Source: Sialis fuliginosa (Eukaryota; Arthropoda; Insecta; Megaloptera; Sialidae). Taken from it: a stretch of DNA of 64,000 nucleotides. A model generated the notes under the pieces. It was not told the origin of the DNA and did not search any database. It saw only the letters and a program-made list of their open reading frames with translations. Where the stretch lies: NCBI GenBank assembly GCA_961205875.1, contig OY540810.1:23498001-23562000 (forward strand). Direction: 5' to 3'. The position numbers and the translations under genes were made by a program. Positions 492 to 48,357 of this stretch are shown piece by piece. The stretch's first letter is position 1, and every line of letters begins with the position of its first letter.

Positions 492-1505
492 ACAATTGCA
501 AATATATTTAAAAACAAATTTTTTTTTATGGTGCACCAAATAAATACAAATCATAAAAAATTTCGTAGTATTGTTGAATTATTTAATCTGGCTACAATAA
601 AATGAATTAATGTTTCGTTTTTCTACATTTTAAACTGACCGAAATATGCGAAAAAGTGTGAAAGCTATATATTTTTATATGCATTTGCATATAATCCGAG
701 CTTTAATTATTAAAAATGGAAGTCAATATCAATCTTCTGTCACGGAAGATTATATTTTACATAGTTTATCAATAAATCGGGCTCAATTTTAAATACAATG
801 CAATATATAAAAATGTAGGTATATGTATGTATAACGTAACAACCTTTATTACTGTAAATTATAATACTTATTGTTTGTGTATCTTCCTTGGGAGGAATAT
901 TGAACTAATTATTTACTGTGAATGACTAACCCAAAAATACATTAATTTTATTTATTTGTGAAGAATCATAGTTGTTTTATTTAGATTACGATTATAATAT
1001 TATTATTTAATTTTATATGGGATTTTTCAAATGAAATGATATTATTTAAAAAATGAAAGGTTTGTGTTTGTATGTTTGCTAACGATAATCTCGGAAAATA
1101 CTGAATCGATTGAGATGAAACTTGCACTGTTTCTTATTCTAAATATTATACCACAGAGTTAATACAAAAAAATTTGACGTAAGCCAAAGAAAAAAACGGT
1201 CAGTTCACATATAATGCAATACGCTGGCAAAAATACCAGATACATATATATTATTATCAAAAGTATATATAGGTATTCTATTATTTGGTATAGTCTCTCA
1301 AGATTTAGCGATATTCATACGTCTATAAAGCAACGCTGGGTATAATAAGTACTATAAAATTATAATTTTCAAATGTTAAATTATATTATTTGTATTTTTA
1401 ACATACATACAAAAATAGTCTATTATATTAATTGTTTGGTTTATCAAATTTTCTGTGCGATGTATATTTATATATTTAAATAGAATTTTGAGCTGGAAGG
1501 CTTAC
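492..1505. other. AT-rich non-coding DNA, left edge; intron side of the BTB exon
   Basis: No coding exon is visible. The segment lies inside the first intron following the minus-strand BTB exon, because the rest of the BTB domain is not found here and must be beyond the left edge. Around 1055-1150 there is a fragment containing a 'ctgaatcgattgagatgaaact' type phrase. It resembles the phrase in the repeats at 12256 and 49480, so it is probably another decayed copy of the same dispersed family. Confidence 0.5.
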
Positions 1506-1658
1506 CTTGTGCGCCGTGAATGATCTTCCGTCACAGGCGAGAGTAACATCAACGAAATCTTCATTATCTCTGAGATGTCTGAACGACGACAGCATACTCG
1601 TCTGGAAGTCGTTCCATCGCAGCGAATATTGCTGCTCAGGCCCCGTTTCTCCACCCAT
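1506..1658 (-). CDS. ab: BTB-domain transcription factor, first coding exon (abrupt-like)
   Basis: This minus-strand exon encodes 51 residues beginning [19 protein letters not shown] and ending [19 protein letters not shown]. It covers the first part of a BTB/POZ domain: the YSLRWNDF strand, the SSFRHLRD helix, the DVTLACDG strand, and the AHK that in the family precedes V-L-S-A-C-S-P-Y-F. The frame ends exactly at a codon boundary at 1506, followed by a consensus donor GTAAGC (complement of 1500-1505). The ATG at 1656-1658 is chosen because the preceding in-frame stretch has no other ATG before a stop at about 1734-1736. Among insect BTB proteins, [18 protein letters not shown] followed by SFTAHK is closest, from memory, to Abrupt, a BTB zinc-finger repressor controlling dendrite, muscle-attachment and wing-vein patterning. 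Broad and Tramtrack have different residues here. The remaining BTB residues and zinc fingers lie off the left edge. The BTB call is firm; the paralogue is probable. Confidence 0.85.
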
Positions 1659-2320
1659 TGGGGAACCGTACCCCTCTGCCACGCAATTTATTCTGACCAC
1701 CGTGAAAGATTTCCTAACCCTCTCCGACAATACCTAAACAACATTTGCTTCAACAAACTTGCACTACTTTTTTCACTCGCACTTTTTTTTTTTAATTTGG
1801 AATTCAACTATAAATTTCGTCGTTTTTTTCCTTGTCGACAGTAAAATTTAAGCAACATTTGCTAAATTTTCACACTCTCTATTTGTAAACATCTAACTTA
1901 AATAGCATTAACACACTTTTTATTCCTTCGTATTTGCTCTATTTTAAACTTTTTTGCAAACGTATTAAACTTTTTTTTTGAATCGTATACGAGTATTTCA
2001 TCTGGCACTTTAAATCCGATAGTTTACTTTTGAATTTTTTGTAGTATCCGTTATAACGACATAAATCTATATAGCGTATACGTAATTTAACATCAACAGC
2101 CTATTTTTAAGTCTTAACTAACTCGTATAGCTTAGTGTTTTTTATTTTATTTATTTTCAAAAGAAGTATCACTTATCAATTACGATTTGGCGTATACGAT
2201 TTGGTAGCAACAATATTTAGGCAATACGGTTTGTTTGAGTGGGATCAGCCAAGTAAATTTCTTCTTTGTCTTCTTCTTGTGTTAAATATGTTGGGATAGC
2301 TTCAGTCACGTGTTACTTGT
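1659..2320 (-). other. Candidate 5' UTR part of the abrupt-like exon
   Basis: Upstream of the ATG on the minus strand the sequence is non-coding and AT-rich, with an in-frame stop near 1735. Reading upstream, the first good splice acceptor is ATATATATTTTCAG (complement of about 2321-2334), which would start a 5' UTR-plus-coding exon at 2320. This is an inference from one acceptor-like string. A nearer acceptor or a transcription start inside this stretch is possible. Confidence 0.3.
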
Positions 2321-15117: not shown

Positions 15118-16391
15118 CAGATATTTCTTCTCTGTTATGAACCATTTGAAACACAATTTTAAATTATTCTTTTCGAAAAATAGTTTTTTTTTTTTTAATA
15201 AATAAAAAGAACATAAAATCGATAAAATATTACAAATTTATTAATTACAATACATATATGTAATATATTATAATTTTTAGCTTGACCATTTTTCCGTAAT
15301 TCACACCGTTTAAAAAATAATTAGAAAAATTAAAAAATGAGATCAATATCCGATTAATGATTGTTTTCAAAAAGTGGAAGTTTTTTTCTCAGAAAAAACT
15401 AATCTTATATATAAAATTTCATCTTTCTTTGATTTGTCGTATTGGAGTTACAGAACTTACCTACAGACGGACCGATACACAGACATCATGACGAATATAG
15501 AATCGATTTAGGGAAAATCAAAATGGATAATTCCATCAAAATCCGAATTTCGAAAAAAGTCAGCTTTACTATACTTCTTATTATATTTCATATACATATA
15601 GGTATAAGAAAGTAAAAATTCAATTAAGGAATCTATAGGGTATGGTAGTAGAGTGTTATAGCTTCATGAGGGCCTAGGAAAATTTTAATCCCCCCTTCGT
15701 ACATTGTTGAATTCAGAAATTTATTCTTTGGGATTTTTTCTATGACTTTTTATCAGAGTTATTGAAATTTTTTAGCTAAAAATGATATTTTGTGTGAGTA
15801 ATTCTTACTCTCGATCACTCACGCCTTGTATTTTTTCTCAGGCCCAGTAACGTTTATGACACAATTTAATATAAATTATGTTATAAATAAAATTTTTAAA
15901 TATATTTGAGGGGATATTTCTATAAAAACTTGAAATTAGAATCATGAAATTTGACAGAATTTTTTAGGTTTTCAATTTTGTTAAGAGTATGTTTGTTTTA
16001 TAGAAAACCCGAGTCGAAAAATAAAACCTAGTTAGATTTTTTAAATCCTAAATTCCTTTGTTGTTCGTTTAACTGCTTAAAAATGGAACGTGTAGATGTT
16101 AAACGTGCTGTTGAAACTCGTCTATAACGCACAAACTCTATTTATGACTATATTCATATATACTTTTAAAAGTAAAATAAAATATTGCAAAAGCCAATCT
16201 AAAAATATTTATGAGTGAAATATAGGAAAAGTTGTTAAATTGATTAAAAATACTTTGACAAATTCATTATTTTACGATTATTATTTAAGAATGGAAAATG
16301 GATTCAATTGTATTTGAATATAAAGCACAAAAAACTAATAAATAATTATACAATATATTATTAGAGATAACACATATTTCTGAATTAAAAT

Positions 16392-16650
16392 CAGGGCCGT
16401 AACTACCACCGGGGCAGCCGGAACAGTGCCCCGGGCCTCCCGAGCATAGAGAAGCCCCGCAGCAGCGTGAAAATTGGGGGCGGCAAGATTGAGGCAGCAA
16501 AAAAGGCCATTAAAATTAGTAACAAGCGTATGGTGGATTGAGGTAGCAACGAAAAAAAGGTTTCAGTTGTTTTATTTTGTATATATTGTGGGAGGAGGGC
16601 CCCTCGATCACTTGCTGCCCCGGGCCCCAAAGCCTCTAGTTACGGCCTTG
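16392..16650. mobile_element. Nested hAT MITE in the left foldback arm
   Basis: It has termini CAGGGCCGTAACTA and TAGTTACGGCCTTG, and is GC-rich inside. ATTAAAAT lies on the left and ATTACAAT on the right, a 7/8 8-bp TSD typical of hAT. Short open frames across it are not genes. Confidence 0.8.
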
Positions 16651-19540
16651 ATTACAATATATTATGTAGGTAAATTTATTAATTTATTTATGAATATAAC
16701 TTCATAAATAAGAAAACATGTGTTACCGATAATAATATATAAATAATATATAAAATCAACGTTTGAACGAGAGGTAACCTAAATATATATTTCCTCTCGT
16801 TTACATATATTAACATCTATTTATTACAAATATATGATATTTTTCATAATTTTCATATTATTTTTTACCCCGACTAGTAATGGATTAATAAAAGAATACA
16901 AAAGAGATATTTTTATTATTAAATTTTAAAGATTAAACATAATAATCTTTAAAATTTAATAATAAAAATAAATAAAGATTATAAGAATACAAAAATTTTA
17001 TTTCATAAAATAATTTTCAGACGTAAAAATTTTAACGACAGCTAGATTACAAACAATTAATCATAATATTCATTATTTTATGTTTTTTATTGAACAATGA
17101 AGAAGTAATTCAATTATTTTAATACAGAACCCAAAATAACTACAAAAAATCCTGGTTATTCATAAATTAGTTAATTATTGATTGATTAATATGTACATAC
17201 TAATTGTAAGTGAAGTAAATTTTTTAATTGATAACATAAGTCTTTTAAAGAAGTAAATATTTACATTTATTTTACTGTATTTCTTTTTGCATGTTATTCA
17301 AATTTATTCTTACGTATAAATAAGCATTTATGTTTATTTCGACGCATAAAGTGATCAAATTTAATATGAGATTGTAATGGCTACAAAATCGCATCGTATT
17401 ATTTTATAAATATACATAAAAAGGTGCAAATCGTATGCTATTATTACATACATTTTTAACACAAGTTAACTCTCATTCGCAAGATGTTTTAAGATTCAAT
17501 CCTTATATACAAGATCTTAGAGAGAGAAAACAAACAGTAAGTTACAATATACTTATTTAATTTGTGTTAAACTACACATCCATTATATACGTATTTAGTT
17601 TCAGATCTACCAGTGCAACTAGAAGAAACATGAAGAGAGAGAAAAGAGGTGTTGTGTTTGTGTATGTATTATATGTATGTGTGTGTATGTCGTTTGTGTA
17701 TGATGATGACAATGGTGTGTCCATTGCTGCTGAATAAAGATGGGTAGAGTAGACTTGTCTCTCAACAAATGTTTTTATAAATTTTTATGCGATTTTAAGA
17801 TTTGCTGGTTGAAAATAGAATTCTTGAGACCGATTTGGACTTAAACTTGCTAAAAGCGGACAAATCTGTTATGTTTAGGTTTGAATTGAGTTTTGTTTAA
17901 CATACAATCTCCATTGCTACAAAAACTATTTACACCTACAAATCATTATTTAAAGCATTCAAGTTCAAACAAGGTTTTATATTTCGACTCGGGAATAGAA
18001 TGAAAAATGAAATTTTCAAATTGTAGATCAATATTTCAAATGGTTATCGAAATATTGCTTCCCAAAGTTTCAATTTTTCAAAATTTTGAGGAAAAATGGT
18101 TGTAACCGGTTGTCAGAATTGATTTTAGCTAACGGATTGTTTAATTTAGACGCGAACACTGTAAATATTCCATAAAATTGATAAATTACCCGAGTCGAAA
18201 TATAAAACCTTGTTTGAACTTGAATGCTTTAAATTAAGATTTGTAGGTGTAAATAGTTTTTGTAGCAATGGAGATTGTATGTTAAACAAAACTCAATTCA
18301 AACCTAAACATAACAGATTTGTCCGCTTTTAGCAAGTTTAAGTCCAAATCGGTCTCAAGAATTCTATTTTCAACCAGCAAATCTTAAAATCGCATAAAAA
18401 TTTATAAAAACATTTGTTGAGACAAGTCTACTCTACCCATCTTTATTCAGCAGCAATGGACACACCATTGTCATCATCATACTCACGACATACACACACA
18501 TACATATAATATACACAAACACAACACCTTCTCTCTCTTCATGTTTCTTCTAGTTGCACTGGTAGATCTGAAACTAAATACGTATACATATAATGGATGT
18601 GTAGTTTAACACAAATTAAATAAGTATATTGTAACTTACTGTTTATTTTCTTTCTCTAAGATCTTGTATATAAGGAATGAATCTTAAAACATCTTGCGAA
18701 TGAGAGTTAACTTGTGTTAAAAATGTATGTAATAACAGCATAAGATTTGCACCTTTTTATGTATATTTATAAATACTTGTATTTATAAAATAAACGATGC
18801 GATTTTGTAGCCATTACAATCTCATATTAAATTTGATCACTTTATGCGTCGAAATAAACATAAATGCTTATTTATACGTAAGAATAAATTTGAATAACAT
18901 GCAAAAAGAAATACAGTAAAATAAATGTAAATATTTACTTCTTTAAAAGACTTATGTTATCAATTAAAAAATTTACTTCACTTACAATTAGTATGTACAT
19001 ATTAATCAATCAATAATTAACTAATTTATGAATAACCAGGATTTTTTGTAGTTATTTTGGGTTCTGTGTTAAAATAATTGAATTACTTCTTCATTGTTCA
19101 ATAAAAAACATAAAATAATGAATATTATGATTAATTGTTTGTAATCTAGCTGTCGTTAAAATTTTTACGTTTGAAAATTATTTTATGAAATAAAATTTTT
19201 GTATTCTTATAATCTTTATTTATTTTTATTATTAAATTTTAAAGATTATTATGTTTAATCTTTAAAATTTAATAATAAAAATATCTCTTTTGTATTCTTT
19301 TATTAACCCATTACTAGTCGGGGTAAGAAATAATATGAAAATTATGAAAAATATCATATATTTGTAATAAATAGATATTAATACATGTAAACGAGAGGAA
19401 ATATATATTTAGGTTACCTCTCGTTCAAACGTTGATTTTATATATTATTTATATATTATTATCGGTAACACATGTTTTCTTATTTATGAAGTTATATTCA
19501 TAAATAAATTAATAAATTTACCTACATAATATATTGTAAT

Positions 19541-19768
19541 CAAGGCCGTAACTAGAGGCTTTGGGGCCCGGGGCAGCAAGTGATCGAGGGGCCCTCCTCC
19601 CACAATATTTACAAAATAAAACAACAGAATACGCTTGTTACTAATTTTAATGGCCTTTTTTGCTGCCTCAATCTTGCCGCCCCCAATTTTCACGCTGCTG
19701 CGGGGCTTCCCTATGCTCGGGAGGCCCGGGGCACTGTTCCGGCTGCCCCGGTGGTAGTTACGGCTCTG
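19541..19768. mobile_element. Nested hAT MITE in the right foldback arm
   Basis: This is the reverse-orientation counterpart of the insertion at 16392. Its termini are CAAGGCCGTAACTA and TAGTTACGGCTCTG, flanked by ATTGTAAT and ATTTTAAT. Because both arms carry it at the same internal place, the insertion predates the duplication or spread of the arm sequence. It is about 30 bp shorter than the left copy. Confidence 0.8.
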
Positions 19769-20557
19769 ATTTTAATTCAGAAATATGTGTTATCTCTAAT
19801 AATATATTGCATAATTATTTATTAGTTTTTTGTGCTTTATATTCAAATACAATTGAATCCATTCTCCATTCTTAAATAATAATCGTAAAATAATGAATTT
19901 GTCAAAGTATTTTTAATCAATTTAACAACTTTTCCTATATTTCATTCATAAATATTTTTAGATTGGCTTTTGCAATATTTTATTTTACTTTTAAAAGTAT
20001 ATATGTATATAGTCATAAATAGAGTTTGTGCGTTATAGACGAGTTTCAAAAGCACGTTTAACATCTACACGTTCCATTTTTAAGCAGTTAAACGAACAAC
20101 AAAGGAATTTAGGATTTAAAAATCTAACTAGGTTTTATTTTTCGACTCGGGTAGTGCAAAAAAAAGAATAGACATATAGACCGATAGATTAACAAAATTT
20201 AAAGTAAAACTGCCAGTAAAACAACGTACCTATGGACTCAAGAATAACATGTTTTCTACAGATTTATATACATACATATATTAACATTGATTTACTTCAG
20301 TAATTTCTTCATTAAAATTATATTGACATTTGAATATTTCGGTTTCATTGAAATTAAGGAAAAAGTAATAACATTAAAATGGCTGAACCAGTGGTGTCGT
20401 AAAACATTCTTCTCGCAGTATTTTCTATCCATTTATCTACAAGAATTGCCGAAGTAATATATAGGTTTTCCAAAAACAAGAAAATATATATAAAAATAAA
20501 ATAAACGTAGATACTATAAAAAAATAATTTTGTTTAAAACAAGGTAATGAAGAATGC

Positions 20558-42784: not shown

Positions 42785-43518
42785 ATTGAAAATTTATAAT
42801 AAGTATTTGGGAATAACTCTTCCTTTAACTAGCTTCAATCTTCTTTCAGCTATTGCAAGCGGCACGCACTGTTTCCATTGGCATTTTGTCCCAAATTTTG
42901 ATAATAACATTCTTAAATTGCTGCAAATTTGGGAGTTTGTAATCTGGGAACTTAGACAACATACATATACGACCATACAAAATAGTCGGAGGATTGTAAT
43001 TAGAAGAGCTTGACGGCCATTCATTCTTCAACAAAAAATCAACCAAATTATCTTTACACCATGCTTGAATAATGTTTGCTGTATGGGAGGACTACATCTT
43101 GTTGAAATCAATAATAATCATCTCCAAATAAATTTTTGGAATTTAGCACGACATTTCTCTTCAATACTTCTTCCAAATAGTATTTTGCATTGATTTTTAC
43201 GCCTTTTTCGATAAAAATTAATGGTAATTTGCCTCTTAAGTTGATGGCGCCCCAAACCATGACCGACGTAGCATTCTGGAATCTTGAAACGTGTCTTTTG
43301 TCTTCCAGGATGTCATCAATCCTAGCAAACCAAACTGTCATTCTGGGAGTTGTGGGATTGCTCCAGAATAAATAACTTCTCATCAGAAAATATAAATTCG
43401 TCATCAGCGTGCCAAGCCATTTTTTAAATATTATTTCTCGATATACTTTCACGCTCGAAATTTTTATTAAGACTAATTTAAATTGCTTAATTGTTTTACA
43501 TGATATACTAGATAACAT
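42785..43518 (-). pseudogene. Decayed Tc1/mariner-superfamily transposase
   Basis: On the minus strand, 43108-43518 encodes NPTTPRMTVWFARIDDILED, VMVWGAINLRGKLPLIFIEKG and VKINAKYYLEEVL. These belong to the central DDE catalytic region of Tc1/mariner (IS630-type) transposases. The frame then breaks at about 43108, with FQQD-like sequence visible just after in another frame. It continues at 42846-43046 with NEWPSSSSNYNPP and FKNVIIKIWDKMPMETVRAA, the C-terminal part. At least two frameshifts and stops make it inactive. It lies inside the intron after 42509, antisense to the host gene. The N-terminal DNA-binding region is not visible. Confidence 0.85.
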
Positions 43519-43557
43519 AACGGTACTTTCAATTGTTTTTTGGTATAGAATGGGTTG

Positions 43558-46768: not shown

Positions 46769-47131
46769 ATGTATGGTTTATGATAATGCACCATGCATGC
46801 ACTATAGTGATGCATTGGTGTTTTAATTTCGAATATTAGACATTCCTTTTTTGTATACAAATGTATACCATCCTATCCGGGTGGTCTATTTAAATTGAGA
46901 CAAGTAAATATTTCGAAAACTAAAGAATTTGAGAGAAAATGTTTGGTACAAAAGTTGCAGGGTTAGGAGGGGGAAAACTAATGAATGTAAAAAAATTGAA
47001 CTTGAGTGTATGTTTTAAGGTCATTTTGAGTTCAACTTCATTTTTTTAAATGGAAATATATATATATATATTTTTGCATATTTGTATTCTACAATAAAAA
47101 GGAAATAACTTTTGTCTAAAAAGTTTTTTTG

Positions 47132-47251
47132 AAAACCTTCCTGTTGAAACCACATTCTTCTTTTTTCTTCATCAGTTAGCTTATGTAGTTCATATAGCGC
47201 TTGATCCAAAAAGTTTCGATATTTTACACCATTCAAGTTTCCATAACAACA
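47132..47251 (-). pseudogene. Mariner transposase fragment (second catalytic Asp region)
   Basis: Minus-strand GNLNGVKYRNFLDQALYELH followed by KLTDEEKRRMWFQQEG matches the mariner pattern LNGxxYxxFLxxxLxxLLxx...MWFQQDGAPAH. The catalytic Asp position is Glu here. The homology stops right after this motif, where the inverted arm begins. Confidence 0.75.
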
Positions 47252-47328
47252 ATTTATTTGGAAAGGCTTTCAGTTTTCCAATTTGGCTAGGCTTTCGAAT
47301 TATTTTGAAATATCTAATTATTATCATG

Positions 47329-47385
47329 TTGAAAAATGTATTGAAGTTGATGGTTATCACTTCGAATATTTATTATTTACATTAA
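47329..47385 (+). pseudogene. Mariner transposase C-terminal fragment, opposite strand
   Basis: Plus-strand VEKCIEVDGYHFEYLLF corresponds to the mariner transposase C-terminus (CIxxxGxHFExLL). Because it lies head-to-head with the catalytic fragment on the minus strand, the source transposase was broken and partly inverted. Confidence 0.65.
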
Positions 47386-48357
47386 TAAAACATTTTAAAT
47401 TTCCATTATTTTTAGTTTCATTTTTTCTAGAAGATTAATTTCAGATATTTTTAACAAAAAAAAAATTTTTTTTTTTATTAAAATTGGGATTTAAAAAAAA
47501 ACATTTTTAGACAAAAGTTATTTCCTTTTTGTTGTAGAATACGAATATGTAAAAAATATATATATTTCCATTTAAAAAAATGAAGTTGACCTCAAAATTA
47601 CCTTAAAACATACACTCAAGTTCAAATTTTTTACATTCATTAGTTTTCCCCCTCCTAACCCTGCAACTTTTGTACCAAACATTTTCTCTAAAAATTCTTG
47701 GTTTTTTAAATATTTACTTGTCTCAATTTAAATAGACCACCCGGTATATATTATTTCAATTATTATTAATTGCAATTTAATTTTTTTTGAGAATTCCGGC
47801 AATTCCGGTTCCGGCCGGAATAGAAAAATCCAGTTCCGGTATAGATTTGTTATATTTCAAAATTTTAATTACATAAAAATAAATCGAAAAATTATTTTTT
47901 GCAAAAAAAATCATACAAGACCGAGTTTTTTCTTGATCTCATCTCTGTCTCAAATACGAGACAAGATCGTGATGAGAGCAGCTTATTTTTTTTAGACGAG
48001 ACCGAGACGAATGTTTTCAATTTTCACGAAACGAGACTGTTAAATATTCGAGACCGACATGAGACTTAAAAAACGAGACATAACTGGTTCTCGTTTCGTT
48101 CGTGCGGAGCCCTGTTATCGCGGGAATTGTCGATAAAGGTATTTCAAAACATTTCATTTTAATAGATATATCTAAAACGAAATTCAAGCGATGAAATTTT
48201 CTGCAATTTGTTAATTATTTACAACCCAAAAATAAAATTATGATCTGATAATACATTTTGATCAAAATTTGAATTTTTAAAATAAAATCTATTTACGAAT
48301 TTTTTGTAATGTTAATAGAAGTACCTATGTACTTTATCTAAATTCTACAGCCTACAT

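What the first reader, a model, noticed from the sequence alone, without database searches (positions are those of the whole stretch)
16008..20151. 4.1-kb foldback made of two head-to-head copies of an undescribed 2-kb TIR element
Each 1.97-kb arm has its own CCCGAGTCGAAA inverted termini, and the two arms are inverted with a 195-bp unique centre. The arms carry a shared nested hAT MITE and AT palindrome but differ by scattered substitutions and indels, so the palindrome is not a simple read-through artefact. It is either a giant foldback transposon or two adjacent insertions, and no transposase is present, so the source of mobility is unknown.
Basis: seen in the sequence. Interest (0 to 1): 0.75.

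Follow-up and report, generated by a model that had tools for sequence, protein, structure and literature searches.

The report
Two neighbouring insertions of one transposon
A long palindrome in an insect-like genome is not one giant hairpin transposon but two copies of the same small jumping element, without a recognisable protein gene, that landed 195 bases apart in opposite directions, which is an ordinary outcome of transposon movement.

Summary
Arm 1 (16008-17993, 1986 bp) and arm 2 (18189-20151, 1963 bp) are inverted copies, 98.7% identical, each with 29-bp CCCGAGTCGAAA termini. The foldback-unit reading fails. The 195-bp "unique centre" is mostly host repeat: with the arms and one 2-bp duplicate removed, an old dispersed repeat runs from the left flank across the arm-1 site into the centre without a gap at the junction. 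Each arm has its own 2-bp target duplication (AA; TA); the outer flanks do not match. The same duplication length flanks 9 of 10 related 5.5-kb elements and 10 of 13 short ones. The arms are two separate insertions, and the only full-length copies of this type among 50 reported matches (40 of 1871 candidates scored); a short local hop is likeliest. They belong to a family of at least 27 paired elements, 268 bp to 5.5 kb. CCC termini plus 2-bp duplications match animal CACTA-related (TRC) transposons, but no transposase gene between such termini was found, so that assignment is provisional. Ordinary; low interest.

The parts
16008..17993 (+). Arm 1: complete 1986-bp non-autonomous TIR element
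18189..20151 (-). Arm 2: complete 1963-bp copy of the same element, inverted
16008..16036 (+). Arm 1 left ('A-type') 29-bp terminal inverted repeat
17965..17993 (-). Arm 1 right ('T-type') 29-bp terminal inverted repeat
18189..18217 (+). Arm 2 T-type terminal inverted repeat
20123..20151 (-). Arm 2 A-type terminal inverted repeat
16006..16007 (.). Arm 1 target-site duplicate, left copy (AA); right copy at 17994-17995
   Evidence: checked against uninterrupted copies of the repeat
18187..18188 (.). Arm 2 target-site duplicate, left copy (TA); right copy at 20152-20153
15895..16007 (.). Left part of an old dispersed repeat interrupted by arm 1
17994..18138 (.). Right part of the same old repeat, making up most of the 195-bp 'centre' (17994-18188)
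16392..16650 (.). Nested hAT-type MITE in arm 1 (259 bp), 8-bp duplicates ATTAAAAT (16384-16391) and ATTACAAT (16651-16658), 7 of 8 alike; 'hAT' is a recalled label
   Evidence: the 5.5-kb relative L039 lacks it
19541..19768 (.). The same nested MITE in arm 2 (228 bp)
16908..16970 (.). 63-bp AT-rich palindrome inside arm 1 (mirrored at 19221-19283 in arm 2)

Best explanation
Two separate cut-and-paste insertions of one non-autonomous DNA transposon lie 195 bp apart in opposite orientation. SHOWN: each arm is a complete element with its own inverted termini; arm 1 sits inside an older dispersed repeat with a 2-bp AA duplication; arm 2 is flanked by a 2-bp TA repeat; the same termini, mostly with 2-bp duplicates, recur in a genome-wide family of elements of 268 bp to 5.5 kb. 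INFERRED: one arm arose from the other, or both from a neighbouring donor, by a short local hop; a transposase supplied in trans moved them; that transposase is probably of the animal CACTA-related (TRC) kind, because of the CCC termini and 2-bp duplications (about 0.55 by my judgement). After duplication the copies diverged by about 1.3%. The confidence below is for 'two separate insertions'.
For: Empty-site test: window flanks joined without the arms and without one 2-bp duplicate each align with no gap at the arm-1 junction to two copies of the old repeat, L061 (190/259 identical) and L060 (194/267); with the duplicates left in, the alignments are two columns longer (261, 269). Perfect 2-bp duplicates: 2 of 2 arms, 9 of 10 5.5-kb elements, 10 of 13 short elements; pooled 21 of 25 against about 9% expected, p about 1e-18. 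Outside that pool: the 3548-bp element is a miss (TT/TA), and a second family has 4 of 6. Outer flanks of the window pair are AA/TA. TIR 21-mer with up to 2 mismatches: 96 matches against 1 for the reversed control. Only two full-length copies among 50 matches reported. The arms are by far the closest of 27 paired elements. TRC termini and duplications: PMC1636069, passages.
Against: The TA repeat of arm 2 has no empty-site check: its right flank is unique in the genome. Two bases match by chance about 9% of the time each. A 9-bp register gives 6 of 9 at arm 1 and also 6 of 9 for the outer pair (p about 0.03 each, ten lengths tested), but 2 of 9 at arm 2. Only 40 of 1871 candidates were scored in the whole-arm search, so further copies may be missed. 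Other family ends also lie within 50 kb of each other, six cases at 7-37 kb plus the joined ends on C6 343 bp apart, so closeness is not unique to this pair. No transposase-coding element with these termini was found, so the moving enzyme is inferred.
Confidence: 0.92

Rival explanations
1. A giant foldback transposon: the 4.1-kb palindrome moves as a unit through its outer ends, with the 195 bp as its loop.
For: Near-palindromic 2-kb arms with intact outer ends. Outer flanks match 6 of 9 at a 9-bp register (p about 0.03, one of ten lengths tested).
Against: Most of the loop is host repeat continuous with the left flank. Outer 2-bp flanks differ (AA/TA) while the family's duplication is mostly 2 bp. 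No second copy was reported.
Confidence: 0.03
2. Two unrelated insertions from distant donors of a once larger 2-kb subfamily, close together by chance or because the site is attractive, rather than a local hop.
For: A diverged, truncated member with part of the same nested MITE exists on C6 (C6:5440225-5441391, main pieces 78-89% identical), so the subfamily once had more copies. Family ends cluster elsewhere too, notably on C12.
Against: The arms are much closer to each other (98.7%) than to any other reported copy. Two given random insertions fall within 195 bp with probability about 1e-6, i.e. about 3.5e-4 for any of the 351 pairs among 27 elements (my arithmetic); this ignores target preference.
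Confidence: 0.2
3. An inverted duplication made by replication template switching or DNA repair, or an assembly artefact.
For: Long inverted repeats are common products of such events (general knowledge).
Against: Similarity stops at the element ends on the outer and on the inner side of both arms, each arm has its own 2-bp duplicate, and the arms differ by 26 substitutions and 8 indels.
Confidence: 0.03

Closest known systems
TRC elements (animal CACTA-related transposons, SmTRC1 and its Tribolium and Aedes relatives; PMC1636069, passages)
   Same: Termini begin with CCC (Tribolium 27-bp terminus, Aedes CCCAGTCAAC); 2-bp target duplications, there in 7 of 14 SmTRC1 copies.
   Different: TRC elements encode a Transposase_21 protein; no element scanned here shows one. 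The genome's two reported Transposase_21 loci (C10, C14) show no pair of these termini in the 8.0-8.5 kb fetched around each.
Foldback / Galileo-type elements with very long inverted repeats (recalled; titles and abstract openings seen in the listing)
   Same: Long inverted arms around a short middle.
   Different: Here each arm is itself a complete element and the middle is mostly host repeat.
ISL2EU of the PHIS superfamily (PMC4482050, passages)
   Same: 2-bp target duplication.
   Different: ISL2EU duplicates AT within A|AT|T; here the two bases vary (AA, TA, GT, AT, TT, TC, AC, CA, AG, GA).

Membership tests
TRC / CACTA-related DNA transposon | Termini starting with CCC | tested here: met
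   CCCGAGTCGAAA at all four arm ends and 94 exact genome matches against 3 reversed controls; reference termini
TRC / CACTA-related DNA transposon | 2-bp target-site duplication | tested here: met
   21 of 25 elements, plus one miss outside the pool (L059); one paralogous empty site, for arm 1
TRC / CACTA-related DNA transposon | Transposase_21 (PF02992) gene in an autonomous member with the same termini | tested here: inconclusive
   Two PF02992 loci in the genome; no pair of these termini in the fetched DNA around them; their proteins hit only themselves and each other among all loci held; a look-alike end (CCCGAGACAAAA, L064) proved unique sequence
Foldback transposon (unit of two long inverted repeats plus loop) | Whole palindrome moves as one unit with outer target duplication | tested here: not met
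   Outer flanks AA/TA; most of the centre is interrupted host repeat
ISL2EU | AT duplication in an A|AT|T target | tested here: not met
   Varied 2-bp duplicates; definition
Tc1/mariner | TA target duplication (recalled) | tested here: not met
   Arm 1 AA; family duplicates include GT, TC, AC, CA, AG
piggyBac | TTAA target duplication (recalled; piggyBac termini also begin CCC, recalled) | tested here: not met
   No TTAA duplication at either arm or in the 23 other elements tabulated

The most novel reading that the evidence does not exclude
The CCCGAGTCGAAA families (2-kb, 5.5-kb, short elements, and a second family sharing only the first 12 bases) could be moved by a transposase lineage not yet described that makes 2-bp duplications of almost any sequence and hops over very short distances; no coding member was recognised in this genome with these tools.
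Probability: 0.12. Interest if true: 0.5.

Novelty: new member of a known kind. Interest (0 to 1): 0.2.

Why it matters
It removes a candidate 'giant foldback transposon' and shows how two complete elements can mimic one; such pairs could inflate foldback calls in repeat annotation. It also gives defined termini and a duplication length for a young non-autonomous family (ten 5.5-kb copies with 0-1 differences in each of 45 pairs over their first 240 bp) whose transposase could now be sought.

Tried and rejected
Rejected: foldback unit; inversion between the arms (worked out by hand from the flanks: exchanged duplicates do not match; no separate call); 7-9-bp duplications (6 of 9 at arm 1 but 2 of 9 at arm 2); PHIS groups with AT, CWG, ANT or TNA duplications. 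Led nowhere: Rfam (0 matches); TIR patterns in viral contigs and genome contigs (0 matches each); blastn to phages with arm 1 and to plasmids with the whole pair (no match); the 12-mer in papers (455 papers hold at least one of three strings; the listing ranks papers with more terms first, and its top rows hold only the two shorter strings); further paper searches for foldback, PHIS, head-to-head, 2-bp and local-hop elements, of which only PMC4482050 and PMC1636069 were opened, by passages. Pfam: 10 ORFs of the window, none in the arms; the two longest arm ORFs (no family); 5 ORFs of L039 and 5 of L059; 11 of L066. No transposase model was hit in these elements; weak hits to other models lay below their cut-offs. 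Not scanned by Pfam: the seven other arm ORFs, the short elements, L067-L071. The nine other 5.5-kb copies were read at their ends only. The single terminus C12:1043657 is a truncated end. The background stretches L001-L021 (205 kb) held no terminus within 5 mismatches of the 21-mer except one 5-mismatch match in L010.

Full report
OBSERVATION. The window lies at G000:C2:23498001-23562000 of a 392-Mb assembly in 20 contigs. A BTB-domain exon fits an animal, insect-like by my judgement; the species was not identified. The two arms are at 16008-17993 and 18189-20151 with 195 bp between them. They align at 98.66% over 1944 ungapped positions with 8 indels. Each arm has a 29-bp terminal inverted repeat, 26/29 identical, and the similarity between arms ends at the termini on the outer and on the inner side. 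Stop-free stretches in the pair are short: nine of 60 codons or more, the longest 78 in arm 1 and 95 in arm 2, most of them in or across the nested MITE; the two longest match no Pfam family.

WHAT THE ENDS ARE. The 21-base terminus with up to 2 mismatches occurs 96 times in the genome against once for the reversed control. From these, 27 plus/minus pairs within 10 kb can be read: ten elements of 5490-5562 bp, one of 3548 bp, the two window arms, and fourteen of 268-1149 bp. The exact 12-mer occurs 94 times against 3 for the control and reveals a second family that shares the first 12 bases and then differs. So CCCGAGTCGAAA is a true terminus, not an internal part of a longer repeat.

TARGET DUPLICATION. 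Perfect 2-bp duplicates flank 9 of 10 of the 5.5-kb elements (miss: C5, AA/TA) and 10 of 13 short elements with both termini recognised in the fetched DNA (misses: L036, L053, L058). The 13 are eleven of the fourteen short pairs plus L034 and L038; three short pairs were not fetched. The 3548-bp element is a further miss (TT/TA). In the second family it is 4 of 6 (misses: L066, L067). Random flank pairs in this window match at 2 bp about 9% of the time. Arm 1 is flanked by AA/AA and arm 2 by TA/TA; the outer flanks of the pair are AA/TA. The duplicated bases vary, so target specificity is weak. A 9-bp register fits arm 1 and the outer pair 6 of 9 each, but arm 2 only 2 of 9.

EMPTY SITE. Positions 8-145 of the centre match a dispersed repeat (44 matches reported, the self-match and second pieces of some copies included; 40 of 483 candidates scored). 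When the arms and one 2-bp duplicate each are removed and the flanks joined, the repeat aligns from the left flank (about 15895) across the arm-1 site to 18138 with no gap at the junction: 190/259 identities to L061 and 194/267 to L060; with the duplicates left in, the alignments are two columns longer. Arm 1 therefore entered a pre-existing repeat by itself, and most of the centre is host repeat. The repeat match ends 50 bp before arm 2, and the right flank of arm 2 is unique, so arm 2 has its TA duplicate only.

RELATION TO THE FAMILY. The whole-arm search reported 50 matches (40 of 1871 candidates scored, many of them hits to the nested MITE); only the two window arms are full length. Searches with each end alone gave 43 and 40 matches (40 of 152 and 40 of 54 candidates scored) and no further full-length copy. 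The 5.5-kb copy read in full (L039) shares only its ends with the arm: arm 1-384 at 72.7%, 640-769 at 82.6% and 1766-1986 at 83.7%, apart from pieces under 100 bp. It lacks the nested MITE and shows, by eye, a single ATTTTAAT where the arms have the two flanking 8-mers, so the MITE probably entered the 2-kb lineage later. A truncated member on C6 keeps part of the MITE and is 79% identical over arm 524-1067. The arms are thus each other's closest reported relatives. Among the 27 paired elements they are the only two closer than 50 kb; counting single ends, six other neighbours lie 7-37 kb apart, four of them on C12, and on C6 two ends are joined 343 bp apart. Two given random insertions would fall within 195 bp with probability about 1e-6. 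A short local hop before the 1.3% divergence is the simplest account; which arm came first is not known.

WHO MOVES IT. The 5.5-kb copy (longest stop-free stretch 90 codons), the 3.5-kb element (80) and six second-family elements up to 9.1 kb (longest 106) are short of coding frames, and the ORFs scanned (5 of L039, 5 of L059, 11 of L066) hit no transposase model; weak hits to other models were below cut-off. The animal CACTA-related TRC elements have CCC termini and 2-bp duplications, the latter in 7 of 14 SmTRC1 copies (PMC1636069, passages). The genome has two reported Transposase_21 loci with long frames (748 and 826 codons), but the 8.0-8.5 kb fetched around each shows no pair of these termini, and one look-alike end proved unique sequence. 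Membership in TRC is provisional, about 0.55 by my judgement.

VERDICT. Observation confirmed, foldback-unit reading rejected, two adjacent insertions supported. It is a new non-autonomous family of a known kind, as far as these tools reach, and ordinary in behaviour.

Noticed in passing
window 46877-47744: A second inverted pair (46877-47130 against 47495-47744, 92.5% identical) around a reading-frame piece at 47024-47269 (-) that resembles a mariner-type transposase by eye (recalled; the only Pfam hit was Neil1-DNA_bind, below cut-off).
   Followed up: no
window 43111-43557: 149-codon open stretch on the minus strand that looks like a mariner transposase fragment (recalled; no Pfam match).
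   Followed up: partly
window 1479-1733: BTB-domain exon on the minus strand (Pfam PF00651, E 3.2e-5, over cut-off); the only one of the ten window ORFs scanned there to pass a Pfam cut-off.
   Followed up: partly
G000 C12 (19.26 Mb): C12 holds 23 of the 96 terminus matches although it is about 5% of the assembly; possibly a sex chromosome or a low-recombination chromosome (speculation).
   Followed up: no
L022 425-1591 (C6:5440225-5441391): A T-type end fragment of one family member abuts the A-type end of another, both facing the same way, with internal tandem duplication: a self-insertion or aberrant joining.
   Followed up: partly
L066-L073: A second family sharing only CCCGAGTCGAAA at its ends, with 2-bp duplicates in 4 of 6 paired loci, up to 9.1 kb long.
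   Followed up: partly
L063 3038-5281; L064 2333-4810: Two Transposase_21 genes with uninterrupted long frames, 30% identical to each other over 572 columns; their element ends were not found.
   Followed up: partly
L060 210-804: The old repeat that arm 1 interrupted is itself, in this copy, a 595-bp palindrome (93% self-complementary).
   Followed up: no
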